From: Heterotrichella gracilis
Taxonomy: Eukaryota > Sar > Xanthophyceae > Tribonematales > Xanthonemataceae
Direction: 5' to 3'
Assembly (NCBI GenBank): GCA_032358255.1
Contig: JAULBX010021076.1
Coordinates: forward strand, 186,001-250,000
Length of the DNA stretch: 64,000 nucleotides
Shown here: positions 265 through 58,100 of the stretch, one piece after another
Position numbering within the stretch: position 1 is the first letter of the stretch
Layout: the number at the start of each line of letters is the position of its first letter
Notes under the pieces: model-generated
Told to the model about the DNA's origin: nothing
Seen by the model: only the letters and a program-made list of their open reading frames with translations
Database searches by the model: none
Position numbers and translations under genes: made by a program

Positions 265-3200
265 GTACTCCACCCCTCCAGCGGGGCAGGCCCATGATCC
301 TGGACTACTGCAACCCCAAGACGGTAAGTCCCAGCACACATGTTCGGCGCCCCGCTGTACACTGACTGCCGGCCTTGCAACGGCTTGCTGCATGGCGTGT
401 GGGGGACGCGTGCCAGTTGTAGGCATACCTGTTTTGACTGTGTGCCTCCCCATTTACTTGATTTCGCATACCGTGATCAGCGGTTTCCTTTTAACGCCAC
501 TGGAGGGTTCAGTCCCCTCACCGTCCAGCGCGGTCCCCAGCGGCACTCCCTGGGATTGACCTTGACACACAGAGTCGTCAGCTAATTATATACCTGCACG
601 GCAGCAGCAATGTTCATCATGTGCAACCAAGGTGGTGTACACTTGTGATGGTTTAGGGTTTAAGGGTTTAGGTTTTAGGGCGGTGTGCGCATGTAATGCC
701 CTTGTGTGCCACTGACTGTGCCACGGGTGTGTGCAGGACTCGGTGGGTAACCCCACCACCTGGGCGCAGGTCCCCTTTGACAAGCTGTATGGGCCAAACG
801 GGTGGTGCGAGTCACCCAACCCGGTGCACACGTAAGCGAAACCCTGTACCTAAACCTGGTTCACACGTAAGCCTTCCCCTCCATGTGACCACGCGGTGGC
901 CAACCACAACCCACCCCCCCCCCCTAACAGGCTGTTGGGCAAGCTACAATGCACTTGTAGAAGAGCGCATTCCACGGTGTCCATCAAGCATGTCACCCGG
1001 CACTTACCCTCCACATGCACCACCTCACAAGTGTGTAATCGTTGAAACTAAGTCCTCTTTACCTGTGGATCCCGGACAATACATCTGTCTGTGCGCACAG
1101 GTGTGCTTGCCTACATGTACCCTCACATGCAACCTGAATGCGATACCATGCAGCCATGTGTTGTTGCCCTACTTGTATCAATGCACACCCTGTCAGGTGC
1201 ACACACGTGATGTGTTGTTCTCCTCGTAACCTGCACCTGCCCTGTTCTGATGACCGCAGCAGCCACATACGCACCACCTCTCACCCCTCAAACCACGTGC
1301 CCGCAGGTGTGGTTGCCTCATCGACGGTGCTGAGGGCCACCTGTGCGACGTGCCCCTCGAGCAGTACTGCCCCAACCAGTGCGCGGGCCACGGGGAGTGC
1401 AACTTTGGGTTCTGCAAGTGCCACCAGGGCTGGTATGGCCAGGACTGCTCGCGGCGCGTGGCGGGGCTGCCCTACGAGAAAGGTGGGGAGCGGGGGTAGG
1501 GTTTGTAGTGTAGGGTATTGCGAGGCTTGGTGGGAGTAAGTTTGCTGAAGGCGCGTGGCGGGGCTGCCGTACAAGAAAGGTGCAGATCCCTAAACCCTAA
1601 TCACCTTTTGCTTCTAAACTCTTATAACCCAGGCCTGCACGAAACAAGCAAGCCCTTGATGCGCGACCTGACATGCAACCCAGATGGGGCGCATCCTACC
1701 CTGAAACCCAAAACCCTCGCCCCCGTACCTGCACAGGACCCACAAATGCCTGGCTACACGAGGTAGTTCTCACCCTAAACCCTAAACCCTCACCCGCAGG
1801 CCTGCACGAGACCAACAAGCCCTGGTTGCGCGACCTGGATGCACAACCCTAAACCCTATTCCCCTATTGATCCCTAACCCTAAAACCCTAATCCGTAGGC
1901 CTGCACGAGACCAGCAAGCCCTGGATGCGCGACCTTGTGCGCAACCCCGTGGGCGTGCACCCCCCCAAGGTGAAGCAGCGCAAGCACCCGCTCATCTTTG
2001 TGTACGACCTGCCGCCAGAGTTCAGCAGCCGCATGCTGCAGTACAGGGTGGTGCGGGAGTCGTGCGTGTACAGGTGGGGATAGGGATCGGGATGGGGGTG
2101 GGGATGGGGTGGGGGTGAGGATGAGATGTGGGGGTGAATAGGATGGGGGTGTACAGGGTGGTGCGGGAGTCGTGCGTGTACAGGTGGGGGGGTGGGGGTG
2201 GGGTGCAGAGATGCATGGGTGGGGGGCACACCTGGTGCACAGTGAAATAACATAAAATCGTGGGACACATGAACTTCCAATTTTTTTTAACCTAAGCAGC
2301 TGTAACACAAGTCCGTGCATGAAAACTGCTCAAAAGAGAAGAAGGGCATTGCAAAGATCCTAAATACGCTGTTTGAGTTCCATTCCCTGGAATGGGCACC
2401 CATAACAGTACGGTATACGGCGGCAAAACACCAGCTTCCACTCCTGGTACAGTCACTCAATCCTCTTTAAACTGCAATTCCTCTTTTGCACCCCCCTCCA
2501 CCTCCTCCTGCAGGCTGTTCTACGGCGGCAACACCACCAGCTTCCACTTCTGGACCTACGGCATCGAGTCGCTGCTGCACGAGCAGCTGCTGCAGAGCGA
2601 GCACCGCACCTTTGACCCCGATGAGGCCGACTTCTTCTACGTGCCTAGCTACACCGGATGCTTCATGCACCCAATATATGGCTGGGCCGACTACCCCTGG
2701 TACTACCGCCCGGGAGGTGAGGGTTCTCCGCCCCAAACACCTGCATTATCGTGCATCTTGTTTTAGGGTTTAGGTTAGGGTATGTTGAAACCTGCATGCC
2801 TGTGTACCGCGGCGCACATGTGACCCACATGAGGGTAAATTTCTTCTACGTGCCCAGCTACACGGGCTGCTTCGTGCACCCAATCTACGGCTGGGCGGAC
2901 TACCCCTATTACTACCGCCCGGGAGGTGAGGCGGGGTGGTGGTGAGGTGGTGGTGGGGTGGGGTGGGGTGGCTGGTGGCCTCAAAAGCCTCTGTGGAGCA
3001 TGCGGATGGGTAACCATAGGCTGGTATCAAGATACCTAAGCAATTTTCAAAAGTATTGCACATGGCCAACATGGGCTTGACCCCCATCATTACTCACCGT
3101 GCTCCCCCACCCCATCCCTGTTATTCCCCCCAAACCCCCTCCCCATTTCTCCAGGTATCCGCGTCATGCACATGGCCAACATGCTCATCCTGGTCAAGGA

Positions 3201-5816
3201 GTACATCCAAAAGACCTACCCCTGGTGGAACCGGCGGGGGGGCAGGGACCACATTTGGCTATTCCCACACGACGAGGGGGCCTGCTGGGCCCCCAACGTA
3301 ATTTGGCCCTCCATCATCCTGTCGCACTGGGGGCGCAAGGACTTCCCCCACACCTCCAACACTGCCTACGCGGCTGACAATTATACCGAGGAGTATGTTG
3401 ATTCCTTCTATGAGCCCACCGGTTGGCTGCACAAGATCAACAAGCACCCCTGCTTCGACGCCGTCAAGGTGGGTGGGGTGAGGGGTTAATTTGGATGCAT
3501 CATACAGGGGGGATGGATAACTTAACGGAGGAGTATGTCGACTCCTTGTACGAGCCTACAGGCTGGCTGAATAACAAGCACCCTTGCTTTGACCCGGTCA
3601 CAGGATGGGTGGGGTGGTATGGGTGGGTGGGTGGGTGGGTGGGGAGTGGGTGAGAGGCCGGGGAGCTGCTGTATGGCACATCGATAGCTGTGATCAGCAA
3701 TCCTAATCCTGTGATCAGGGATTAGAAACCGAGTTGTAAACCTCATGCTGAAGGTCAAGTGGACCAACTGAAACACAGTGAATACACACTGCAGGTGTAG
3801 TCCAGCGGCATGCTGATACCTCCGTGCCCTAAACCCTAAAACCTAGATCCTACACCCCAGTATTGCCGTCACGAGCATGATTCCTCCACTTTTTTAGGAC
3901 CTGCTCATCCCGGCCTTCAAGCCCCCAAAGCACTTTTCCGGGTCCCCAATTGCCGGCCTGGCCCCCGTTGAGCGCAAGGTGCTCATGTACTTCAGGGGGG
4001 ATGTGGGCAAGCACAGGGAGAAGTGGTACAGGTAAGCACAGGGGAGGGGGGAAAGGGGTAGGTAGAGGGGAGGCCTATGGCTGGGGCAGGGTTTCGTTGC
4101 CTGGTATACTGTACATTCAGAGCTGTCCTGGGAAGCACTCCACATCTGAGCTGACCACAATGTCAAAAGCCAGCCAGAGCGGGCAACTCGTAGTCTACAT
4201 CTACAGTTGAAGCCTGAAGAGGGCATGGCTCAACGCCTCCATCCTACCTAATGCTTTGACTGCGTCCCCCCACCCTCCCTTCTCCAGCTATGGAATGCGC
4301 CAGGAGCTCTGCCCACACCTGTGCAAGCTGCTTTACTCTGAACCCAACCCCTATCACTTGTGCAAGCTATTAACCCCTAAACCCTAATCCCCCTGTTCCT
4401 CCTGCCACGGCATGCGCCAGAAGCTGTACAAGCTGTACAAACCCTAAACCCTCAACCCTGTGCAAGGTCCTAAACCCTAAACCCTAATCCCCCCCACTCT
4501 CCAGCCGCGGCGTGCGCCAGAAGCTGTACAAGCTGTGGAATCTAAACCCCAAACCATAAACCCTAAGCCCTAATTCCCCCCGCCCTCCAGCCGCGGTGTG
4601 CGCCAGAAGCTGTACAAGCTTTGGAAGGAGGATGGGTGGCAGCAGAAGTACCAGATCATTGTGGGTGGCTACGAGGACGCTCCCGGGGACTACTCTGGCT
4701 TCCTGTCTAGCTCACAGTTCTGCCTGGTGGTGGCAGGTAAGGGGGATACAGTCACAGTAAGGCATCCCAAATGTGTGGCGTTCAGGGGCACGCAAGGCAA
4801 TAGGCTGATTATGGCTGGCATTGTTTTTCTCTTTGATTGTAAGGCGGCCCAGGATGGGGGATGCAGCATTTGCAACAGTTGTGACAACAACAAACATCTC
4901 AGCCTTCGTCGAGCATCACCGCTACTGAATCAAAATACAATCAGGGAATGTATGCAATGCACTGAAAGAATTAATGTTCACTTAGCCACGCCCACGAGGT
5001 TCCACGTCACATCCATTTCTGTGCACTCGCCGACCCCCCAGATAAATCCATGGTATTGTACTGTTTTTTATTTTCAGACGTTTATTGTGTTTCACTTCCC
5101 GCCTCCCAGGTGACGGCTGGTCCCCCCGCCTGGAGGACGCCATGCTGCACGGCTGCATCCCCGTCATCATCATGGACAACGTGGAGGTGGTGTTTGAGAC
5201 GCTGTTCGACTTCAGCCTCTTCTCGGTGCGCATTGCTGAGGCTGATGTGGAGAAGACGCCGCAGATCCTGGGGGCCATTAGTGAGGAGCGCATCCAGGAG
5301 ATGCAGAAGGAGCTGGCGCAAGTGTGGCACAGGTGAGGGGGAGGGGGATTAGGGTTTAGGGTTTCGGGGGCTGGGCAGGTGGAGCTGGCGCAAGTGTGGC
5401 ACAGGTGAGGGGGGGAGGGGGGGGGGAGGGGGGTAGGCTTCATCCCCAGCTTTCAAAATGGTGTGGTACATATGAGGGGACAGGGGTCAAGCTTTTCTTT
5501 TGTGCGACGTCAGCAGTACCGTAGTCAAGAGGTTTAAAATCAAATTCACTTTCATCATGCGTAAAATCCATGTGCATTCAAGCCTTGTTTGTTCCCTAAC
5601 CACCCCCTCCCCTCCCCTCCCCGCAGGTACTTCTACGCCAGCACCCCCCTCCTCCAGGAGCAGGTGCAGTCCAGGGTGCGCGAGCAGTACCGCCCAGGTG
5701 AGATTCCCAACCCCCCGCCATCGTACCCGCTGCCCTTCAGCGGCGACGTGGCGGCAGACGACGCCTTCCAGACCATCCTGGCGTGGCTGCACTCGCGCAT
5801 CCCGCACACGCGGTGA
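265..5816 (+). CDS. EGF-domain exostosin-like glycosyltransferase (GT47), 5' partial
   Basis: Ten exons fit in phase: 265-323, 737-831, 1307-1482, 1899-2073, 2514-2716, 3155-3468, 3898-4031, 4591-4736, 5110-5332 and 5627-5816, giving about 570 residues ending at TGA 5814-5816. An EGF-like cysteine module (CPNQCAGHGEC, then CKCHQGWYGQDC) precedes the exostosin core, which begins HPLIFVYDLPPEF. Core landmarks are FFYVPSYTGCF, HIWLFPHDEGACWAP, SSSQFCLVVAG and DGWSPRLEDAMLHGCIPVII; the last two are typical of the GT47 nucleotide-sugar-binding half. GT47 proteins transfer sugars in the Golgi, and green algae carry many EGF-exostosin fusions; the substrate cannot be told. The exons upstream of 265 are not resolved. 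A hydrophobic stretch (LVTLIICLFITT) encoded near 140-180 could belong to a membrane anchor. Nearly every intron contains partial copies of the adjoining exon end. Confidence 0.85.
1500..1898 (+). repeat. Echo copies of exon ends with telomere-like motifs (intron of exostosin gene)
   Basis: 1551-1585 repeats the donor end of the preceding exon (encoding RRVAGLPYEK). About 1630-1680 and 1799-1850 repeat the start of the next exon (GLHETSKPWMRDL), each degenerate. CCCTAAA-type motifs lie between the copies. The true exon starts at 1899, because only that copy continues into the conserved exostosin core. Confidence 0.8.
2125..2515 (+). repeat. Echo copies of donor and acceptor exon ends
   Basis: 2149-2195 duplicates the donor end of the exon finishing at 2073 (encoding YRVVRESCVYR plus GTGGGG). 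2395-2450 is a degenerate copy of the start of the exon at 2514 (LFYGGNTTSFHFW). The intervening sequence is G-rich and low in complexity. Confidence 0.75.
2760..3095 (+). repeat. Duplicated exon segment FFYVPSYTGCF...RPGG with donor
   Basis: 2843-2926 is a near-identical copy of the last 85 bases of the exon ending at 2716, including the GTGAGG donor. It keeps an open frame but has no evident acceptor immediately before it. About 3056-3090 also copies the start of the next exon (MHMANM). TTTAGGG motifs occur at 2762-2782. Confidence 0.8.
3515..3660 (+). repeat. Degenerate copy of exon end (TEEYVDSLYEPTGWL)
   Basis: The segment repeats the last 90 or so bases of the exon ending at 3468, with small indels (one residue is lost in NKHPCFD). 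The equivalent of the donor is altered, and a GGGT tandem tract follows. Confidence 0.75.
4280..4590 (+). repeat. Three tandem echoes of the exon start (RGVRQKLYKLW)
   Basis: Copies of the acceptor plus exon start lie near 4286, 4406 and 4498, before the functional one at 4591. All share GCGCCAG and most share AAGCTGTACAAGCTGT. They are separated by runs of CCCTAAA. The first three run into stops or intron sequence after 30-45 bases. Confidence 0.85.
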
Positions 5817-8143
5817 CAGCGCCAGGTGGCGGCGCCATGACACAGGGCTTGGTGGTAGCGCCAGGTGGCAGCTCCCTGTGACAGGGAGGATGTGGCAGGG
5901 ACGTGTGACGGCGCCAGGTGGCAGCGTGACAGCGCATGCGACCACTGGCGGCAGTGCGGTGTGGCAGCGTCTGTGGCAGTGGCAGTGGCGTGTGGCAGCA
6001 GGTTGAGATGCAGCGCAGGCACACCGCGATTCAGATGCCCGGTCAGCAGCGGACGACGCGTTCCGGACCATCATGGCGTGGCGGTACTGGCGCATACCGC
6101 ACATGCGATGACAGCGCCAGGTGCCGGTGGCAGCGCCAGGGCGTCATGGCCGTGGCGCAGCGCCAGGTGGCAGGGCTGCATGACTGCGGCAGTGACGAGA
6201 GGGAGCCTGTCAAGAGGGGCATGTGGCAGTGCCAGGTGGTAGGGCAGGGGCATGAGAGCACAAGGGGCTGGGGGTGGGGATCCATCGAGGGTTGCGTGTG
6301 GTAGCCAGCAGGCAGGTGCTCCAATGGGGGAGTTGGCCACAGATGAGCTGGGGGTCAAGTGCTGGGAGCAGACCGTGCGGCAGCACACTGTGCGTGGGCC
6401 ATTTCTTCTGGTAGTGTGGATCGTAACAACCAAGTGCATTGCCCAGTGGTGTGCAGCACTGGGCAGTGCACTCGAAACCATCAAGCAAAGTGGGATATGC
6501 AGCTTGCGAGGCAAATAGCCACTATCTCTATCTTTCCATCGTGTCCCTGGCATATGCATGCGTCTCATCCAGTACGACCTGCTCGTCGATTCATAGTGTC
6601 TACACAAAAATGCAGTTGGTTTGCAAATTGGCTTTGCCAGTGATAATACTAAGTATTCTATGCCCAGCTAGTTCTTCTATGCCCAACTTAATATATTATA
6701 AGTAATTACACCGTGACCCTTGACAGACGGTTGAATATTATAAGTTGGACTTGTAGGCAGACAGTCGCTGTGTGTAGCAGTTGCGGCACAATGTGAGACA
6801 TGTCATCGGATGAATTCCACTGAAAGCGTACAATAAATGTCTTAGACTACCGTCAATGACAAAAAATGTAAACACTTTCAACTTCAAGCTTGATTCAGCT
6901 GGCTTCGGAAGCCACCCCCACAAAGCTACTGTCAGTAGCGCAGCTTGGGTCCGATGCCTTTTTGTTTGTGTGTTTGAGTCATTGCATCCTGTTCCCAAAC
7001 CAGCCATTGTGCTGCAATACGTTAGTAACGTAATACGCCGCTGCGACGGGCCATCGGTTGTGCATTGGATGCTGTAAAAATGCACATTGTGCCGCACGGT
7101 TATGCTGCCGCAGGCCGCAATGTAGCAGTGCTACATCATGCCATGGACCAGTCACTGACATCTTACAGTCACTGTGGTACAGCAGCAGCTGCTGTCCCAA
7201 ATGCTGACAAAATCTGCCAGACTCTAAGACTTAATCCACCAATACTTCCAGACTGCAGCCTACGTTAGGGTGGATGCCACTGCCTGTTTAGGGATTAGGG
7301 TTTAGGGTTAAATCCTAAACCGATGCCACTGCCACAAGCTTGTCTAGCCCTCCAGGATCCCAATGACATCTAACGCCATCTAGCTGGCTAATCAATGAGC
7401 TGCTGCTGATAAACTTTCAAATTCAATTGTTGAGCTACGCAAGCTGTGATGGTGCACTGTTCATGCATGTCAATTAGTAGCACTGTAGCCAAGTAAAGTT
7501 TGCCATTGAATGCGAACATAATGTAGTACGGTATATCATGTACACGGGAATGTTGCAGCCGCTGGCAAAGCTGCTGTTGCATTGAGAAAAAAATGGAAAT
7601 TCCTAACAATTTTGGCTGCGCTCAAGATATTTTCCAAGCAAGCAACAGGATGGACCCAGGCCGGGCGCGACAGCAGCTGCAGCCTTTCAAAGCTTGAGAC
7701 AGTTTCTGACATACCTCTAGCAATGCTGCAATGCGGGGTAGCCCAGATATCACCAACTTGCCAAGTTTGCAACCAGGAGGATCCTTCAGTCTATTCAGTA
7801 TTCAACACCACAGATGTGGGGCCACTAGTGGCACAGCGCAAGGCTGATATCACATGGTTTACCCTATCATAAGAATCTTCTCCCCGATACAGTTGTGGTG
7901 GTGCATGTCGTCGAGAATGAACTGTGGCAATGACGCACCATATCCCAATCCCCCTTTAAATTGCTTCCTTTGTTCTGCCAGCCATTTTAAGCGTGCAATG
8001 CATCTGTCATAAGGCTTGGCAGTGAAACTGCTGTGGTTTACATGCTGGGCCAACAACTGCAGCTAGACTGCTGTACTACTGTCAGCCCCCCTGCCCTCTT
8101 GCATACCCCCAAGTCAGCCCTCGTCCCCTCCATAACTTGCCAT
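5817..8143. other. Region between convergent genes; repeats, no gene seen
   Basis: 5817-6300 is a GGCAG/GCGCCAGGTGG-rich repetitive stretch. About 6043-6125 is a degenerate copy of the end of the last exostosin exon and its stop. From about 6300 to 8143 the sequence is AT-richer, open frames are short and no recognisable protein appears. TTTAGGG motifs are at about 7287-7305. TGTAA on the minus strand at 8042-8038, about 100 bases past the mannanase stop, matches the green-algal polyadenylation signal. Confidence 0.55.
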
Positions 8144-20982: not shown

Positions 20983-23900
20983 ATGGGTGATGCCGAGAAG
21001 CCTGCGCCAGAGTTCTCTGGGACCGAGCGGTATGCGGTGGTGCGGCTGCTGGGCGAGGGGTCCTTCGGCAGGGTGTTCCTGGCGCTGGACAGGCAGAAGG
21101 AAGGTGAGCACCTGTTCGCACCGGCGGGGAACACGCCAAGCGCCAACCATGCTTGCACCACCCATGCTTGCACCACCCTTGCACCACCCATGCTTGCACC
21201 ACCCTTGCACCACCCATGCTTGCGCCACCCATGCTTGCACCCACACCCCAGACTGGTATCAAATCAGGCCAGCCTGGGTGCAAGGCTGTGGTGGTTGTTC
21301 CCGATGCGCGTGCGCTTCCCACTGCGCAACCCGCAACGCATAATCTTCCCCGCGACCTCTGGGGCGCAATCCTGACGGCCTCGCTGACAGCCAGGGGCGC
21401 TGCAGGCATGCAGGTTGCGATCAAGTGCATGTCCCGGGGCCACGGCATGACCAAGTACATGGAGCGCGAGATCACCATCCACTCGCAGCTGTTCCACCCG
21501 CACGTGGTGGAGTTCCAGGAGGTGTTCCTCACGGAGCACCACCTGTGCATCGTGATGGAGTTCTGTGAAGGTGGGTCGGATAGGGTTAGGGTTTAGGGTT
21601 TAGGGTAGAGGTGTTCCTCACGGAGCACCACCTGTGCATCGTGATGGAGTGCTGTGAAGGTGGGTCGGATAGGGTTAGAGTTTAGGGTTTAGGGTTCAGG
21701 GTTTAGGGTATAGGGTGGAGGTGTTCCTCACGGAGCACCACCTGTGGATCGTGATGGAGTGCTGTGAAGGTGGGCCGGGTAGGGTGTAGGGTGTAGGATA
21801 TTGGGTCTGATAGGGGTTTAGGGTGGAGGTGGGTCTGATAGGGTTTAGGGTTTAGGGTTTAGGGGTTAGGGTGGAGGTGGGTCACTAGGTAGGCTACCCG
21901 GTAGGTTTGTTTGGCGGTCATGCATGACATGGCAACGCTTGGTTGCAATTCACGATGCTTTCATCGTTGTTGAAATTTGGCAATTGTTAAGGGCCGGTTT
22001 CTGTGACGCATCGCTGCAGCACATGTCAAAATGCGTAGTCAGTTGGTGTAACATGCCAAGCAGTGGTAAACTAGGCAATGCAGCCGTGTTGACTGACTTT
22101 TTTTGTGGCGTGTCAGGGGGTGACCTCTTCTCGTATGTCACGCGACTGCGTGGGCTGAAGGAGGCCATGGCGCGCTGGCTGTTCCAGCAGTTCATTCTGG
22201 GACTGGAGTACTGCCACAGGTACCTTCTTCCCCAAACTTTCCTTCAGTTTTTGGTCTTGTTTTCCCTGTCTTGTTACGGTCCCTGTTTTGTGTGTGCCTG
22301 TTCTCTTGCCTCCTTGGAATCATTTGCACTTTTTGCCATTAGCTTTGGTTTAACATGCCCTGTTCCTTATTTTAAATCCCAGGTGTAACGTGGTGAGCCG
22401 AGACATCAAGATGGAGAATTGCTTGCTGGATGGGAGCATGCCACCTGTGCTGAAGATCTCTGATTTTGGCTATGCCAAGGATCAACAAAACCACTCCCAG
22501 GCCAAGTCAAGGGTGCGTTGCTTGAACAAGAATTAATTATACAGATAAAAAGGGCGCATCTAGCGCATCTTTTCACCATGCTCACCACCTGCAAGCACCA
22601 TCCTGATTAAAGGATGTTTGTTTTTGGTTATACCTGGCTAATTCCACATGACATTGGTAGGGCAATGGATGGTAGCCCACTCCACCCTGCTGCAGGTTAG
22701 CAGCATGGGCTACACCGCGCCTGGGGTATCTCAAGGACAAACCCTAATCATTAAATCCCAAACATGGAAGACAAACCCTAAACTCTTCAACGCACTCCGC
22801 TGCAGGTTGGCAGCATGGGCTACACGGCGCCTGAGGTGATCAAGACCACCAAGAGCTCATATGATGGACAGCTGGCGGACATCTGGTCGGCAGGGGTGAT
22901 GCTGTACAGGTAAATTGTGGGGAGGATATGAGAATGTGAGGAGTGGCTGCATTGCATCATCCACATGGTCGATAAACGGCAAGTGACATGATTGGTTGGC
23001 CACCATCTGCTCGTTTGGACCAACAAATGGTTCAAGATGCCTTGTCTCTTGTTTGTACTGAAGTAAGGCAAGCCCACAATGCTAACTGGCTTTGCAGCTG
23101 GAACGCAGCCATGTGCTTACCTATCCATAGTGGGCACCTTACTGCAAGCATCTACAGCATGCATGCCTTACCAGCCCACGTCGCCCATGAGTCTGCGTGC
23201 ATGCCCGCTCTCCCCATTTACCTCCCCACTGACCCCACCGCGCCCCGCTGGATGTGCTGCAGCATGCTATTTGGCGCCTACCCCTTTGATCGGAAGGGCG
23301 ACAGCAGCCTGGACGCCATGAAGCGCGTGCAGGTGGTCATGCAGCGCATCCTCAACTGCGAGTACCAGGTGCCAAACGACGTCACCCCAGAGTGCAAGGT
23401 GGGTGTGCAGCCTGCCACGGCTTGGTACGCCAGCAGGACACCAAGTCTAAATTCTTGGTAAAATGAAATGCGGGTTTCATTTCACCAAGAATTTAGACTT
23501 GGTGCCCTGCTGGCATACCACTGGTCCAGACACTGTTGCTTCATCAGGTGCATTTCCATCCTACAAGCAAGTTGTACACGTTCACACAAATATTTCAGAT
23601 ATCCATTTGAATATCTGGAACAGCTATATTTGCAATGAAGTATAAGGGGGTCATGCGAGATTGTGTGTGGCACTGTGCATCATGTGTCATCAACAGGCCA
23701 TCATGTGTTGTGCGTTCATGCGTAGCAACGCATTTGCCTGCTGGACCACTGGACAAAGTGGTCATCACATTATCAATAATGGAATTACTTTGAAGTAGAG
23801 GCTTCTAATCTGGGTTCTAAGCTGGAATGCAAACTTACTTCCTTGAAGTAGAGGAGGCAGCCACGACTCATTGTCCCAATGTGCCGCCACCTGCCACAGG

Positions 23901-37050: not shown

Positions 37051-39645
37051 CTATCGCACGATTGAAAACAGCTCCTCAAACGGCAACTTAGGGGCGTCTG
37101 ACTTGGACACAATCTCCACCACCTTGTTGCTTGCGTTGGGGTCAGTGAGGGCCTCCACACAGCAGTCCGCCACCTGGCAGGGGCAATGGAAGAGGTCATG
37201 CGAGTAAAGACAACTTGAAAAGCCCGCATTAATTAGCAAACATGCGTGATCGCTTCACCCCAGCACCGTGCATACTTGATAACATTTGCACATCTAGCTA
37301 GCCGATTTGACGCAAGCCACAGTGCCACCAGTCCAACAACGCCGTGCTCTTAACAGTGCATTAAATCGCGCTGTGAGATTCTGTGTGAGACCATAAACAA
37401 CACCGGGACTGCTACACAACCAGCCACTGCAGGGGGGTTTTACCTGGCGCCGGAGGATGCTGCCAGGTGTCACGTTCCCCTTGGCCACGCCATATGTGCC
37501 GGCGCTGGCCATCACAACCCCTCCCTCCATCTCCCCGTCCTTCAGCGTAGTTTTCAAGCCACCTGCAGCACCACCATGTGGATGAGCGACACGCACATGG
37601 CCTAGCTTGTCTCCCCATGCACAGGTTGACAATGGACATGCAAACAGGGAATATGAAGTTACAAATGACACACCCCCAATTTAGGGGTGGCACACCACGA
37701 TGGTATGTGGACCCTACACCCTGTACTCTATTAGATGGCAGGCATTGATCAAAGGAGGGGCACTCACCTGGCCTGATGATGGTGTAATCCAGCCCTGACC
37801 GCTGCAGCTCCAGCTCAGCTTGCTTCTTCCAGAACAGAACCTGAAAATAAGGGAAGGATACCAGTCCTCAGTAAACGAACGTTGCATTCCTCCGTCTGAT
37901 GTTTCTAATACTTGTGTAGGCAAGTGGCTGGTACCCTTACAAGCGGCATGGCACGCTTACATGGTAATGTGAAGGTAGATGTGCATTTCTCCAGCAATAC
38001 GTACAGTAACTCAACAATACGTACAAGAAACCAGTAGGAGTGGTTGCCTGGCTACATGCCATACGTGGTACTCATTCCCCATGGTAGCAATGTCTGCATG
38101 TACAGCAAGCAACAGCCCATCACACATGACCAAGGAGGGTGCACATCTCAGTAACCGAGTGTGCGCTGCTTACCCCCCAGAACAGGTTGAGTGGGTTGAG
38201 GATTTCGTCTGCTCCAATGGATGTGACAAAAATGAAGCGCTTCACTCCCGCCTGCTTGGCTGCCGCTATCAGGTTCTTCGTGCCCTGTCAAAGACCACAA
38301 TATCAGATATATATTAAATTTTTGAAATCAATAAATGCACCCGTGTGCAATATACTTTATTACGAGCACGTGGCAGCTTGTGGCAAATCTTGTACAAGTG
38401 TGCCGATTATCAATATGCAACCACGCCGAGCGACACAATAATCCGAGCACGACCATTTTGAAAGGCAGTAAGCAAGAAAGCACAAGTGAATAAACGGACG
38501 GCTGCATATACATACAACCAATGGGCACCAAGACTCACCTCGTAGTCGATGGTGAACGGCCCAAGAGGATCCATGGGGTTGGTTGGGCCGGTTGCGCACA
38601 GCACCACATTGCTGCAGAGAGGAGAAAAAAGCGCGTGATTTAGGGGTGCAGCAGGAGAGGGCAACGGAGTGAACACCACATATAGCACTGCTGCCAGCCC
38701 TTGCAACAGGTGTTAATTGTATGCTGTTACTTGTATTCATATAGAACCTACCAGCCTTCGAGTGCGCCAGGGATGGTGGTGTACTTGTACACGTCCCCCT
38801 CAATGATCTCGACATTCTGATCCCTCCCTGGCAGCATGGCAGTCTGCACCACACACGATTTGCCATTATTGCTTGTCGCACCACCATCGCAACACAACCC
38901 TAAACCCTGAACCTAAAAGCGCCCATAGGCCACCGCACTGAACATGCTATGCCTCATGACCCCCATGAGTGACAGGAAATGAGGCTTTTCCCCATGCTTG
39001 CACCGCGGTGCAGATGAAGGAATTCCCCATGATCATCCACCACGATGCCAAGCCACTGCCTGCATTTTGCAGGCATCCAGATTCCAGCACCGCTTACAGC
39101 ACAGAAACAGAACATGGGATGGCCTCACCGCTTTGACTGTGTTCCTGACCAGGGCCCGCACAGGCACCCCCTCAGCCACCAGGCGCTCGATGATGGCCCT
39201 ACCCACACCGCCAGTGCCCCCGGCGACAAACGCCTTCAAATCCTGCATGGGCGCCATTCGAGGGTTACTTAAGAATTATGCATGTGGTGGGGCAGTAATG
39301 CAGGTTTGTCAGCAAGCCATGCAGAGGCCAATATCGTCCACACCATGCATTAGTCCGTACTACCAAACTGTCCAGTGGCCACATTGGTAACAATGATGGT
39401 AAAGCACAACGGTCGCATGACGGAGATATCAAAGCCTAGCCCAGTTGCATACAAGCACTACACTGTAGATGTAAGATACACAAGCCTATCCCAGCTGGAT
39501 ACACACCACTCCAGGTCCCCGGCCTGTGCTGCACTTTGCCCCTGCCCCACCTGGTACTTCTCGCTTGCTTCCGGCAGCATGAGGAGGGGCACCACTTGGC
39601 CATCTGAGGGGGTCAGGTCCTCCATGGAGCCGGTGCTCAGGGGGG
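37051..39645 (-). CDS. Atypical SDR, NmrA-like NAD(P)-binding protein (5' partial)
   Basis: Exons 39645-39551, 39242-39129, 38843-38752, 38611-38539, 38284-38174, 37840-37768, 37562-37444 and 37173-37051 join in phase. The Rossmann start is DLKAFVAGGTGGVGRAIIERL, followed by NVVLCATGP, GVKRFIFVTSIGAD, LDYTIIRPGG and VADCCVEALTDP. This order matches the atypical SDR5 group of plastid proteins (Arabidopsis At2g34460-like), which bind NAD(P) in or near plastoglobules or thylakoids. The reaction is unknown. The exon at 39645 begins mid-codon, so at least one 5' exon, probably coding a transit peptide, lies upstream in the repeat array or beyond it. The alternative start MAPMQ at 39257 would lie in intron sequence. 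Confidence 0.85.
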
Positions 39646-40160
39646 CTGAAATTGGGGGTACACATAGGGGAGTGAGATGCATGCCATGGCACTAGAAACA
39701 ACCCTAAAACCATAGACCCCAACACATGCAGTCAGGTCCTCCATGGTGCTGGTGCTCACTGGGCCTATGGAGTTCTTGGAGAGGGGATAGGTATTAATCA
39801 TATGATTGAGGGTTTGTACCACACCCATGATAACACTAGCTGCTACCCTAAACCCCCAGCAATAGACGTCAGGTATTCCATAGAGCTGGTGCTCCTTGGA
39901 CCTTGGCAAGGGGGTACAACTAGGGGAGTGAGGTGCAAGCTGACGCACTAGAAACAACCCAAACCCTAGCCCTAAACCCTTACAGATGCGTTCAGATCCT
40001 CCATGGAGCGTGTGCTCCCTGGGCCTAGGAAGAGGGAAGCCCACGAGTGAAATGCACGCCATGGTTGTTATTAGGGTTATTGTCCAAACCCTAAGCCTTA
40101 AACCCTAACAGTGGGTGACCCTCCAGGGAGCTGGTGCTTGCTGGGCCTTGAAAAAAGGTA
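39605..40160 (-). repeat. Five-copy tandem array carrying the SDR exon start
   Basis: Copies of GTCAGGTCCTCCATGGAGC plus GGTGCTC, encoding (minus strand) STGSMEDLT, lie at about 39612, 39731, 39868, 39990 and 40113, spaced 119-137 bases. The linkers share GGGGAGTGAGATGCATGCC and CACTAGAAACAACCC and end in CCCTAA motifs. Only the first copy continues into an open exon. Confidence 0.85.
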
Positions 40161-42332
40161 CACGACGACATGTGAGATGCATGCTGTGGCGTATCAGCTA
40201 ATTACAGAGAACGTGGAGTGCACGTGGTGATGGAGGGATTCCCCTGGAGGATCCCCTGGAGGATCCCCTGGATGTCTGTGGTTTTGTGCACAACCCCGCA
40301 GTACCCAATGCATTACAGCAGCAATCTAAGACACACCTTGGCAACAAAGAGTATCTGACGATCCAAATGAAATTATTAAAAATGCATATGTGTACTCAAG
40401 CCTATTGTGGACTTGGCTACCCTGCCCTGTAATCCTGTGGTCATGCCAGATGGCGGGGAAACAAAAAATACATATATGGACGTCCAGTTGCACCAGCAGA
40501 TTACACAACCCAAACGCAGTCATTACCAACTGGTGTGCGAGGGAATCACGCGGTGGGACAAGGTTGCGTGGGGTTTGTGCACAAAACCACAGACATGCAT
40601 TCGGACCCATATCAGTCATGCAATGGACCACCCACTGAGTGCGCAACGGGTTTCAGCGGGCTGCTGCACACACCTGGTTCAAAAGACGACGCCGAGCACA
40701 CGTGGTGGGTCTTAAGCAAGCCCACGCTCCCTTTCCTGCCCCATGGCGTGGGCAGTGGCCTGGCCATCCTTGTGTGGCCAGCAGGCCTCGTGGTTGGGTG
40801 GCATGTGGTAGATGCTGCTAACGACGCCACGGACATTTTGTCAGGCTTTGCGAGGCACACAAATAAACGCTATTGGAAGGAGTGGCGTTACCGCAGGCAA
40901 CAGTAGGGGCCTGTTGTTGTTGTGTCTCCTTATAAGGGACGAATCGCCCAACAATTGTCATGAGGCAAGGGGTAAAATATCCTCTAATAAAAAACAAGGA
41001 AGCCATGGGTCAGCTGGTCATCACAGTGCACTTTATTTGGTCAAGCAGATCTGTTTCCTGACCCCAGAGACTGGCAAGGGACAACCAGATCAACTCCATG
41101 CCAGTCTGGCATACACCGGTTCTAAATGTCCCTACTCTTTTGTGGGCAGCCCCTTGTTCAAATTATACGCCATGCCATGGAGGCGATGTTTTATTAAAGT
41201 TTAACAACTGCCACAGCCCGCCGTCATTCCAGGTGATTTAAGAAGTGACACAGCAAAATGGTTCCTGCTACTTGCGTCAGCAATATGTGGCACCCTGGCT
41301 GGCATTGCCAACCCTTAACCCTCAGTGTAACTTGCCAGTTGTGGCGACCAGGCCCCGCATCTCCGCATCCCTTTCTTTTCACTTTTTAAGTCCTGCTGCC
41401 GCACTGGGCATTGCCTTATGTCCAAACAACCATGTCTGCATATCTACGCAGCTTGTAAACCCTACATGGGGTGACCCTGTATCCAAGCTCTGCCAAGCTC
41501 ATGAGCCAAAGTAAATAATACAGTAAAACAGGCATCATGCATAGTGATGCAGCGGTTCCAACCAAAAATACAACGGTTCCAACCAAATTGGTTGTGCACG
41601 CGCCAAATACATTGGTATCAACCAACTGCATTGTGCAAACTCTGCACACATTTGCAGACGCGCAATTGTTGCTTCAGAACAAAACCTAGAAACCGTTGTA
41701 CAACATATGAAATTCCAACGCAGCCTCTAAGTTGCCAGCAGTTACGTGGAATCGTCACTAGCATTTGCTATGAAAAGCTTTGAGATGAGCATGGAAGATG
41801 GATGACCTGCAACCGTAAAAAAACAACCAATGCAACGACACAACCACGACACTGCACAGTCAACCCACGCCAATCTGAACCCCTGTCCATATCTGAATCT
41901 CCTGTCCATGCAACCCCCTTTGCCCCGTGATGTAAGTTGTATGCTACATGAAACCATTTGATGCACGTTGATAGCAATAATACAATCCCCAAACCCTGAG
42001 CACCAGCTGCCCCACGAGGCACTCAGGTAGCTCAGCAAAGGGCTGCATGATGAAAGCCGCATTCCCCAGCATGGAGGCCAGTATCACGCCGCATGATTGA
42101 AGCTGGATCTGCCGCACATGTGCTCCTGTAGATGGCCATTCCCGGACCCTGCTCTTCAGCTCCAATGAATCTAGCGCTTTTGCACGCTCCAAGCCATGAA
42201 TCCCCCGTCATGATCTGAATCCTTGCGCCTCCCCCCACGTGATTGAAAAGGGGGAGTGTAGCTGCCACCGCCACCTAACCTTGCCAAACCCTACGCAGGG
42301 TAATGCAGCTTCGTTGGCGAGGTGATGCTCTC
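40161..42332. other. Intergenic, SDR 5' side to fibrillin 3' end
   Basis: No gene is recognised. A GGATCCCCTGGA triplicate is at 40236-40272. The missing first exon of the SDR gene may be here. Open frames up to about 130 codons show no conserved motif. Confidence 0.5.
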
Positions 42333-55175: not shown

Positions 55176-58100
55176 ATGGTGTTCTGTCCACAGTGCCAAG
55201 TGGACGTTGAGGCGGAGGCAGACGACGCACATGGCTTCTCGTACGTACCCAACACCCATGGTGGCCGCTTGTGTGGGCCAACTACTGGTGCCCACCCCCA
55301 TATATAGGAACTTACTGGGTGTACTGGACCAGCATATACTGAGCATCTACTATATCCACTCCAGCACGAGTGTATGGACCAGTGTATGTGGACCAACTAC
55401 TTGGTGTGCTGTGTGTAGAACCATGCTGGTTTGTGCACCCTATTGAGGGTGGTGTCCTTGTGCTGCTGCAGCTGCTGTACCCAGTGTGGCCGGGTCATCG
55501 AGGAGGTTGCGTTCTCCAGCGACCCAACCTTCCTCAAGGATGCGGGAGGGGAGAGCACCGTCGCTGGGCAGTACGTGTCTGAGACTGGCGTGGCTCGAGG
55601 CATCGGGCGAATATCTGGTGGCAGGGTGTATGGAAACCAGGTGTGTATGCCCCCTATTTGTGTTCAAGGGCGAAGGTTTATGACATCATTTATCGACTCC
55701 TGGAGTCGCACAGAGACTGCATGTTCCCTGCACAACCCCTTGTTCAAAGACAGGGGCAGTTGCCACAGGGCACCCACCCTCTGTTTTGGTGGTGGCACTA
55801 GGTTGGTTCGCCCCTGCTCTGGTGGGCACACAGGAGGTGGAGTGCAGCACAAGGTGTTGATAGGTGCTGTCAACACATGTGAAGCAGCGTATGTTGCTTG
55901 GCGGGGCGTGCACTAGTGTGCACTGCATCGGGCTTCCTGCCTTAGTATCGGGGGAGCAGACACACTTCACCTGTCTTCCAGCGCCAACTTTGGCACAACA
56001 CACCTAACCCCTGTACCCTTTTACTGCTTGAATAAAAGCAGCTTGCTTTTTCCCCCGTGCACCACCGTCCAACTCCTGCCTGTGCTCTGGTCCAGGTGGA
56101 GTCGCGTGAGAAAACCCTAAACAAGGGCAAACAGGAGATCACGTTCCTGGTCCACCAGCTGCGCATCGCGCCCAGGGAGGGCACCATCGATGGCGCCTTC
56201 AGGTTCTACCAGATAGCGCTGCAGCACAACTTCACGCGTGGCCGACGGACAAACCAGGTGTGCACAGACCCCTACCAGAGGGTTTCTCCTTGGGTTTTCC
56301 CTGACCTGTGCAGACGTTGGGGTAAAGGGTGCACAGCACATAGGATAATGCACCAAAAATACTGCAAACTTGATGCTGTTAGTGCACATGCAACACACCA
56401 TCAAGTCCCTTGCATGCCCAGACTTGATGCATGCTTGATAGATGCAAAACCACTTAGCAATGGACCTAGGAACCCTAGGGAATCCTACTGCACTGCGCAC
56501 ACGTCACACAGCAATGACGTGGCGGACGGGGTGTGCATGCAGGTGCATGCATCCTCTTTTTCCAAGCCCTGGTGACAGTTACTTTCGTGGGATGCATCCA
56601 CCAACTGTGGCCACACGCTGTTCACACCGCCGCTGCCAAGTGCCAGCCCATATTCCTGCTCCCCAGAAAAACCGTAGATTTGAATTACGAATTGAACTCC
56701 CCCTGTTCCCCAGGTTGCCGCTGCGTGCGTGTACGTGCTGTGCCGCTCGGAGCGCCCCCCAAAGCCCTCCCTGCTCATGGACTTTGCCGACCTGCTGCAA
56801 GCATACCGTTAACAGGGATGCTGTTAAATCACAGTCCTGATGCTGCACTTGAGCTGCATGATCATTCCACTAACCCGGCATCCAACTGCATGAAAAATGC
56901 ATCCCTGAATCCCCTGCCCCCCCTTTTCCCAGGTGGCAGCAGCATGCGTGTACGTGCTGTGCCGCTCGGAGCGGCCCCCCAAGCCCTTCCTGCTCATGGA
57001 CTTTGCCGACCTGCTGCAAGTGAACGTGTTTGTGCTGGGGGTGACGTACCTGCAGCTGCTAAAGTGCCTGAGGCTGGATGAGCACCCAGTGTTCACAAAG
57101 TAGGTGCCTGCTGCCCCTGCAGCTGATCAAAACTGAAGAAAGAATTGAGTAGGGATGCAGCAGTACAGGTTCCCCTGGTTGCGCGGGCTTGGAGTTGTTG
57201 CAATTTAGATCCCCTGGCGGCATCTGCATGCCCATGTAAAAGTTCCTAGTCCCACGCGCCCGGGATGCAGCGCATGTTGCACTCACTGCTCTGCCCAGGC
57301 ATCGCTATGCTCCAAGTTATGTACATTTCATTTCCATATGGCCCTGAGCATGCCAGGGGTATTTACCGATACACTAACAGTATATATATCAGTACACCCA
57401 TGCACATGTACAGCACCAGTACTCAATCACCCTCCCTCCCCGTACCGTCCCCCACTCCCCACCTCACACCCCACCACACTCACACCGCTACCCACCCACT
57501 CCCCACCCAGGCCCATCGACCCCTCCCTCTTTGTGACCCGCTACGCCGAGCAGCTGTCTCTGGGTGCTGCCAAATCCGCCATCATCAACACCGCCATGGC
57601 CATCCTGTCAAGCATGAAGAAGGACTGGATACTGACTGGCAGGCGGCCATCGGGCCTCACGGGAGCAGCCCTCTTCTTGGCAGCTAACTACCATGGTAAG
57701 CGGTTTGGGGGTAAACGAAAAGAGTAATTACCTTTTACGTGGTAAAGCTTTTTGGGGTTGTTCAAGCTTCGATTTACCTTTAGCAGTATCTTTTCTGGGT
57801 CGTTAATTTTTTGATCTTTTTTTATGTAAAAAATATATCGCCTGAAAGAATGCGCAGGATCCACGCCAATTTAAATTCTCAAGTTCAACATCTAAAATTC
57901 AATTCCCTATCAACCCCCCACCCCCGGCCGCCTCCCCCCAGGTTGCGAGATCAGCAAGCGCGACGTGATGGCCATCGTGCACATCGGAGAGGAAACCATC
58001 TCCAAGCGGGTGGCGGAGTTTGCAGGCACGCCCTCCGCAGACATGTGCATGACGGAGTTTGAGGAGTACATCCGGGATGTGGACGAGCAGCGGCGGCAGG

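What the first reader, a model, noticed from the sequence alone, without database searches (positions are those of the whole stretch)
265..5816. Systematic splice-boundary echoes in the exostosin gene
Eight of the nine introns between the recognised exons, or the 3' flank, carry one to three partial copies of the neighbouring exon end together with its splice site (near 1551, 1630, 1799, 2149, 2395, 2843, 3056, 3519, 4286, 4406, 4498, 5379, 6043). Copies of donor ends lie downstream and copies of acceptor ends upstream. Many abut TTTAGGG-type motifs. Such regularity suggests a process that repeatedly duplicates exon-intron junctions, possibly break repair with telomere-motif filler, and which could create alternative splice sites or new introns.
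Basis: partly seen in the sequence, partly recalled or inferred. Interest (0 to 1): 0.8.

Follow-up and report, generated by a model that had tools for sequence, protein, structure and literature searches.

The report
Exon-edge copies beside telomere repeats
In this alga-like genome many introns hold decaying copies of the neighbouring exon's edge, often next to telomere-type repeats, which look like scars of sloppy local DNA-break repair.

Summary
The echoes are real. Of 13 listed copies, 11 score far above chance, one (3056) rests on a 17-base exact match and one (4286) is borderline. They occupy six of nine introns plus the 3' flank, not eight introns. The exostosin gene itself is intact.

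They are not peculiar to this gene. In 170 kb of the same contig 66 of 67 local repeats are direct, and 38 of 48 complex families span a predicted exon edge, against 34% simulated. Twenty-one of 134 introns match the upstream exon end in their 5' half and 16 of 134 the downstream exon start in their 3' half; controls, crossed pairings and the classical intron-gain signature stay near 1%. Loci on other contigs repeat it.

Telomere-type sequence abuts the exon-internal end of 17 of 43 echoes, against 15% of random windows. Substitutions fit decaying echoes beside constrained parents.

Best reading: local duplications from end-joining of staggered breaks, some with telomere-repeat filler, kept only where one coding copy stays whole. 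Junction bias is partly selection and visibility; a residual excess is likely. The mechanism is inferred.

The parts
737..5816 (+). Exostosin (GT47) gene, nine modelled exons: 737-831, 1307-1482, 1899-2073, 2514-2716, 3155-3468, 3898-4031, 4591-4736, 5110-5332, 5627-5816 (a further first exon ends at 323)
   Evidence: One open frame of 551 residues, all introns GT-AG; Exostosin_GT47 E 1.8e-50
1550..1582 (+). Donor echo of exon end 1453-1485
   Evidence: 94% identity; score 28 against null maximum 12.5
1630..1670 (+). Acceptor echo of exon start at 1899 (first copy)
   Evidence: score 31.5 against 12
1773..1849 (+). Acceptor echo of exon start at 1899 (second copy) with CCCTAAA repeats
   Evidence: 86% to 1872-1947
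2151..2189 (+). Donor echo of exon end 2041-2079
   Evidence: score 39 against 16.5
2416..2447 (+). Acceptor echo of exon start 2521-2553
   Evidence: 91%; score 23 against 14.5
2813..2931 (+). Donor echo of 2605-2722; TTTAGGG-type repeats in the spacer
   Evidence: 85% over 119 (spacer)
3057..3073 (+). Short acceptor echo of 3167-3183
   Evidence: 17 bases identical
3525..3616 (+). Donor echo of 3385-3480; donor GT lost; differences mainly at third codon positions
   Evidence: 78%; 2, 0, 12 by codon position
4282..4308 (+). Possible acceptor echo of exon start at 4591 (borderline)
   Evidence: score equals null maximum
4398..4434 (+). Acceptor echo of exon start at 4591, beside CCCTAAA repeats
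4493..4540 (+). Acceptor echo of exon start at 4591, beside CCCTAAA repeats
4032..4590 (+). Intron 7, absent from all four paralogues compared
   Evidence: tblastn runs without break across this site in L038, L039, L040 and L041
5375..5421 (+). Donor echo of 5303-5347 with TTTAGGG repeats between the copies
   Evidence: 91%
6046..6173 (+). Copy of the gene end 5751-5871 with its stop codon, in the 3' flank
   Evidence: 77%; score 50.5 against 13
21518..21879 (+). Donor-edge array of a protein-kinase gene with TTTAGGG repeats
   Evidence: Pkinase E 2.1e-8 for the exon
56699..57020 (+). Acceptor echo 56699-56801 of exon start 56919-57020 in a TFIIB-repeat (BRF-like) gene
   Evidence: 91%; TFIIB E 1.8e-5; single copy in the assembly

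Best explanation
The echoes are non-functional, decaying by-products of repeated local duplications of a few tens to about 180 bp in genic DNA. Proposed steps: (1) a staggered break, or two offset nicks, near an exon edge leaves complementary overhangs; (2) both overhangs are filled in, so each end carries the same stretch; (3) the ends are joined, in a share of events after telomere-type repeats were added, giving copy - filler - copy, always direct; (4) only products that leave one complete coding copy survive, so the truncated copy lies in the intron or 3' flank; (5) the surplus copy drifts. Shown here: direct orientation, short spacing, telomere-type sequence enriched at the joint, near-neutral decay, exon-edge bias. 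Inferred: the break, the fill-in, the source of the telomere repeats (telomerase, or copying of existing tracts), and the G-rich intron edge as the fragile or primable site.
For: 66 of 67 local repeats direct, copy starts 56-314 bp apart although 1500 bp were searched. Edge-spanning 38 of 48 families against 34% simulated, 13 of 15 at 88% identity or more; 12 of 14 in exostosin loci and 5 of 7 in telomere-repeat loci on other contigs. Intron-exon test: 21 and 16 of 134 against about 1%. Telomere-type sequence in the 20 bp abutting 17 of 43 echoes against 14.8%; in spacers TTTAGGG 9: CCCTAAA 1 on the donor side and 1: 6 on the acceptor side. Codon positions 86/79/163, 157 non-synonymous against 114 synonymous codons, 3 stops in 50 pairs. 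The 3' flank echo has no splice site. Known precedents for the steps: PMC8355091, PMC2246262.
Against: No break, no reads and no strain without an echo were seen. In 26 of 43 echoes no telomere sequence abuts, and in the 17 that have it the outward orientation is 11 against 6 inward, weaker than in the spacers. Spacers are often unique sequence of 50-170 bp, longer than typical filler. Third-position share varies too much between pairs (p 0.0025, 27 pairs), so some echoes did not simply drift.
Confidence: 0.5

Rival explanations
1. Random tandem duplication without preference for exon edges. In intron-rich genes many 100-200 bp units span an edge, exon-internal ones are removed by selection, and copies of coding sequence stay recognisable longer.
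For: The 3' flank echo is at a coding edge without splice site.
Against: 13 of 15 families at 88% or more span an edge against 34%; outside gene bodies only two non-coding families; replicated on other contigs.
Confidence: 0.3
2. Replication slippage or backward template switching at G-rich or telomere-type tracts beside exons, without a double-strand break.
For: Introns are G-rich at the donor and C-rich at the acceptor even without telomere sequence; it also gives direct copies only; three-copy arrays with tracts exist.
Against: Unique spacers between copies are not expected from plain slippage; 26 of 43 echoes have no tract at the joint.
Confidence: 0.25
3. Echoes are functional: alternative or back-up exon ends kept by selection.
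For: Echo splice sites keep their dinucleotide in 34 of 43; some pairs are third-position biased, e.g. 2/0/12 and 1/0/7, and heterogeneity is significant.
Against: The copies shown end inside the exon without the other splice site; pooled third-position share is 50%, 157 codons non-synonymous.
Confidence: 0.07
4. Assembly artefact: diverged haplotypes laid in tandem.
For: One echo is interrupted by 100 N; a few pairs differ in an allele-like way.
Against: Identities spread from 68 to 97%; pooled differences are not allele-like; no second haplotype of two tested regions is in the assembly; only 110 N in 170 kb.
Confidence: 0.05

Closest known systems
Direct repeats from staggered breaks in new introns of Daphnia pulex (PMC4202315; abstract and passages seen)
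   Same: Direct repeats in introns, some copied from the adjacent exon, ascribed to staggered-break repair that lengthens introns
   Different: There 4-12 bp exon-derived repeats in newly gained introns; here copies of tens to over 100 bp including the splice site, in introns shared by paralogues as well, and with telomere-type repeats
Small tandem duplications by CST-guided Pol alpha fill-in (PMC8355091; outline, abstract, introduction and discussion seen)
   Same: Complementary overhangs filled in and joined give short direct duplications
   Different: Mammalian cells; mostly without filler; no exon-edge or telomere-repeat association in what I read
Telomere repeats inserted at double-strand breaks in mammals (PMC2246262; passages seen)
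   Same: Short interstitial telomere repeats at repair joints, some with duplicated flanks (6 of 130 rodent, 4 of 25 primate cases in its table)
   Different: Duplication is the minority there; no link to exon edges in the passages seen
Intron gain by tandem genomic duplication (review PMC3443670, passages seen)
   Same: Local duplication of exon sequence with splice signals
   Different: Its signature is at background here: 2 and 2 of 134 introns

Membership tests
Staggered-break end-joining duplications | Direct repeats only, close together | tested here: met
   66 of 67 direct, copy starts 56-314 bp apart
Staggered-break end-joining duplications | Copy, filler and joint absent from an unbroken allele | not testable with these tools
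   No second strain or species held
Telomere repeats inserted at breaks | Telomere-type repeats at the joint | tested here: met
   17 of 43 against 14.8% of random windows and 9 of 43 at the other end; the other 26 lack them
Telomere repeats inserted at breaks | One-step insertion seen against an empty orthologous site | not testable with these tools
   No relative held (message)
Intron gain by tandem genomic duplication | Intron start like downstream exon start, intron end like upstream exon end | tested here: not met
   2 of 134 and 2 of 134, control 1%
Introner-like or other mobile element | The inserted piece recurs elsewhere in the genome | tested here: not met
   Exostosin region: paralogue matches 72-85% and two dispersed short repeats outside the echoes; TFIIB-repeat region has no other match
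Duplicated alternative exons | Whole exon with both splice sites under coding constraint | tested here: not met
   Copies end inside the exon; pooled 157 non-synonymous codons and 3 stops. A third-position-biased subset stays unexplained
False duplication of haplotypes | Differences like those between alleles; second haplotype present | tested here: not met
   Third-position share 50%; no second copy for two regions. Reads not available

The most novel reading that the evidence does not exclude
In this lineage G-rich intron edges are preferred sites where broken ends gain telomere repeats and are rejoined with a second copy of the exon edge. This would be the main engine that lengthens introns and now and then starts a new one: intron 7 of the exostosin gene (absent from four paralogues) and an intron found only in paralogue L039 both carry such copies.
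Probability: 0.2. Interest if true: 0.85.

Novelty: new variant of a known kind. Interest (0 to 1): 0.6.

Why it matters
Passages of PMC8226300 call introns of Chlamydomonas relatives conspicuously long (medians 198-343 bp) and leave the driver open; the predicted median here is 347 bp. A pervasive duplication process at exon edges would be a measurable source of intron length and of decoy splice sites, and perhaps of new introns. Each echo keeps its parent alongside, so events can be dated and compared. If the telomere repeats are added during repair, it also ties telomere-repeat addition to everyday repair inside genes.

Tried and rejected
Paralogue as source of the echoes: paralogue matches are 72-85%, and where an echo itself hit a paralogue (69.5-84.8%) the identity is below that to its local parent. 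Haplotype as source: no second copy of two regions. Synonymous-only divergence looked general in the first pairs; pooled over 50 pairs it is not, though heterogeneity remains. Classical intron gain: at background. Echoes as marks of new introns only: shared introns carry them too. Telomere polarity as a plain intron feature: 42 against 16 tracts in introns with local repeats, 24 against 16 in the others, so it is weaker but not absent there. Naming the organism: the 18S search did not complete and a literature search by contig number found nothing. 'Green alga' is my inference.

Weak points of my tables. Exons outside the exostosin gene come from a gene finder that I trained on this region without modelling gene ends. 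Of the nine modelled exostosin exons it gave six exactly, one too short, one too long and put the last on the other strand; my notebook entry that says eight of nine is wrong. Because of this the pair 71751/72046 was read in a wrong frame. In one search two rows (8657/8873 and 71751/72046) have parent and echo swapped, one row is an in-exon repeat, and pair 9980/10174 is missing; none of the three faulty rows has telomere sequence in its spacer. The same rows enter (the in-exon row excepted). From 53 rows two in-exon pairs and one duplicate were dropped before the count. Seven of 66 direct pairs fell below the complexity cut. Duplication multiplies telomere tracts, so the counts are not independent events. 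No other intron-bearing genome was available as control. One search failed by a script error and was redone.

Full report
What was checked. The finding says that introns of an exostosin gene hold copies of neighbouring exon edges with their splice sites, beside TTTAGGG-type motifs. I read the sequence, aligned it to itself, rebuilt the gene, widened the search to 170 kb of the same contig and to loci on other contigs.

The gene is sound. Nine exons with GT-AG introns give one open frame of 551 residues up to the stop, with an Exostosin_GT47 domain (E 1.8e-50) and an EGF-like match over its cut-off. A further first exon ends at 323; I did not include it. The echoes lie outside this frame.

Self-alignment gives 13 direct pairs in the first 8 kb, 11 of them joining an exon edge to a copy. 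Against exon edges of other genes, 11 of the 13 listed echoes stand far above the null; 3056 rests on a 17-base exact match and 4286 is borderline. Echoes occupy six of nine introns and the 3' flank. The copy at 6046-6173 covers a stop codon, not a splice site: a coding edge is enough.

It is not peculiar to this gene. In 170 kb, 67 local repeats reach 45 bits: 66 direct, 1 inverted. Copy starts lie 56-314 bp apart, although 1500 bp were searched. A protein-kinase gene and a TFIIB-repeat gene in the window show it. Exostosin paralogues on four other contigs have their own echoes, while their exons are only 72-85% identical to the window gene. In 17 exostosin loci on other contigs (75 kb), 12 of 14 families span a predicted edge against 27% simulated; in seven loci around telomere-repeat sites (21 kb), 5 of 7 against 33%.

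Is the exon edge preferred? With a small self-trained gene finder, 38 of 48 complex families span an edge, 5 lie in exons and 5 in neither, against 34% for random units as long as the offset; of 15 families at 88% identity or more 13 span an edge. A test on 134 predicted introns agrees: the 5' half matches the last 60 bases of the upstream exon beyond the controls' 99th percentile in 21 introns, the 3' half matches the downstream exon start in 16. Crossed pairings give 1 and 3, exon interiors 1 of 69, 1 of 65 and 1 of 65, the classical intron-gain signature 2 and 2 of 134. Two effects inflate this. Inside gene bodies random units span an edge in 45% of trials, and copies of coding sequence stay recognisable longer. 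Outside gene bodies two non-coding families were found. So the process is tied to genes, and a moderate edge preference is likely rather than proven.

What the copies are doing. In 50 pairs, differences fall 86, 79 and 163 on codon positions one to three; 114 codons changed synonymously, 157 not, 3 of these to stops. That fits a free echo beside a constrained parent, with roughly a third of the changes on the parent. But the third-position share varies between pairs more than expected (p 0.0025 over 27 pairs). A few echoes, such as 3525-3616, look as if both copies had evolved as coding sequence; I have no explanation. Echo splice sites keep their dinucleotide in 18 of 23 donor and 16 of 20 acceptor rows, so they could act as decoys. 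Identities from 68 to 97% suggest events spread over time.

Telomere-type repeats. They cover 2652 bases of the 170 kb; seven control units of the same length cover 12-175. They make up 3.4% of predicted introns, 0.87% of other non-coding and 0.1% of coding sequence, and 0.6% more than 400 bp from exons. Introns with local repeats carry them in 25 of 41, others in 32 of 102 (Fisher p 0.0014). They lie within 20 bp of the exon-internal end of 17 of 43 echoes, against 14.8% of random windows in the same introns and 9 of 43 at the other end. In spacers the repeat mostly reads TTTAGGG outward from the parent exon: 9 against 1 on the donor side, 6 against 1 on the acceptor side. In the 20 bp abutting the echo the outward share is weaker, 11 against 6. 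Introns as a whole have the same outward G-rich bias, also without telomere sequence.

Mechanism. Direct copies flanking a filler are what fill-in and joining of staggered breaks gives. In mammalian cells CST-guided Pol alpha, which also fills in telomeres, does this (PMC8355091; abstract, introduction and discussion). Telomere repeats inserted at breaks, in a minority with duplicated flanks, are described in mammals (PMC2246262, passages). I infer that breaks near G-rich intron edges are joined this way, sometimes after telomere repeats are added, and that selection keeps only products with one whole coding copy. Template switching at G-rich tracts is a serious rival; random duplication filtered by selection is the main rival for the junction bias.

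Relation to intron gain. Intron 7 (4032-4590), which holds acceptor echoes with telomere repeats, is absent from all four paralogues compared; in L039 an intron with a donor echo lies where the window gene and the other three run on. Paralogue-specific introns thus carry echoes, but so do shared ones, and a single case could be an ancestral intron lost elsewhere. Intron creation is possible, not shown.

Known or new. The nearest published case that I saw is Daphnia, where staggered-break repeats lie in new introns, with exon-derived copies of 4-12 bp (PMC4202315, passages). Listings of searches for duplicated splice sites, telomere repeats with introns in algae, duplication with intron gain and break repair with telomeric sequence in intron gain (no paper) showed no title or abstract start describing this pattern; the library holds open-licence papers only, and I read none of the listed papers beyond those named.

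Noticed in passing
window 417-491 and 4762-4842: Two short stretches in introns of the exostosin gene each recur at about a dozen places in the genome at 75-87% identity; they look like old dispersed repeats.
   Followed up: no
window 3385-3480 and 3525-3616; contig C211 129980-130092 and 130174-130286; window 56699-56801 and 56919-57020: Some echo-parent pairs differ mainly at third codon positions (12 of 14, 7 of 8, 6 of 7), more than the other pairs (heterogeneity p 0.0025), as if both copies had been coding or came from different alleles.
   Followed up: partly
window 4006-4046: The first bases of intron 7 resemble the exon 25 bases upstream, one C-to-T change and one extra G apart; a possible tandem origin of this donor. 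Seen by eye; the general test shows no such excess (3 of 134).
   Followed up: partly
introns of contig C211 (170 kb): Predicted introns run from G-rich at the donor to C-rich at the acceptor (skew +0.22 to -0.25), also in 69 introns without telomere sequence or local repeats.
   Followed up: partly
contig C211 128989-129088: A run of 100 N interrupts the second copy of an exon edge: scaffold gaps may gather at such duplications.
   Followed up: no
window 39612-40184: Further local direct repeats of 100-160 bp at 74-75% with CCCTAAA tracts near a weakly predicted exon.
   Followed up: no
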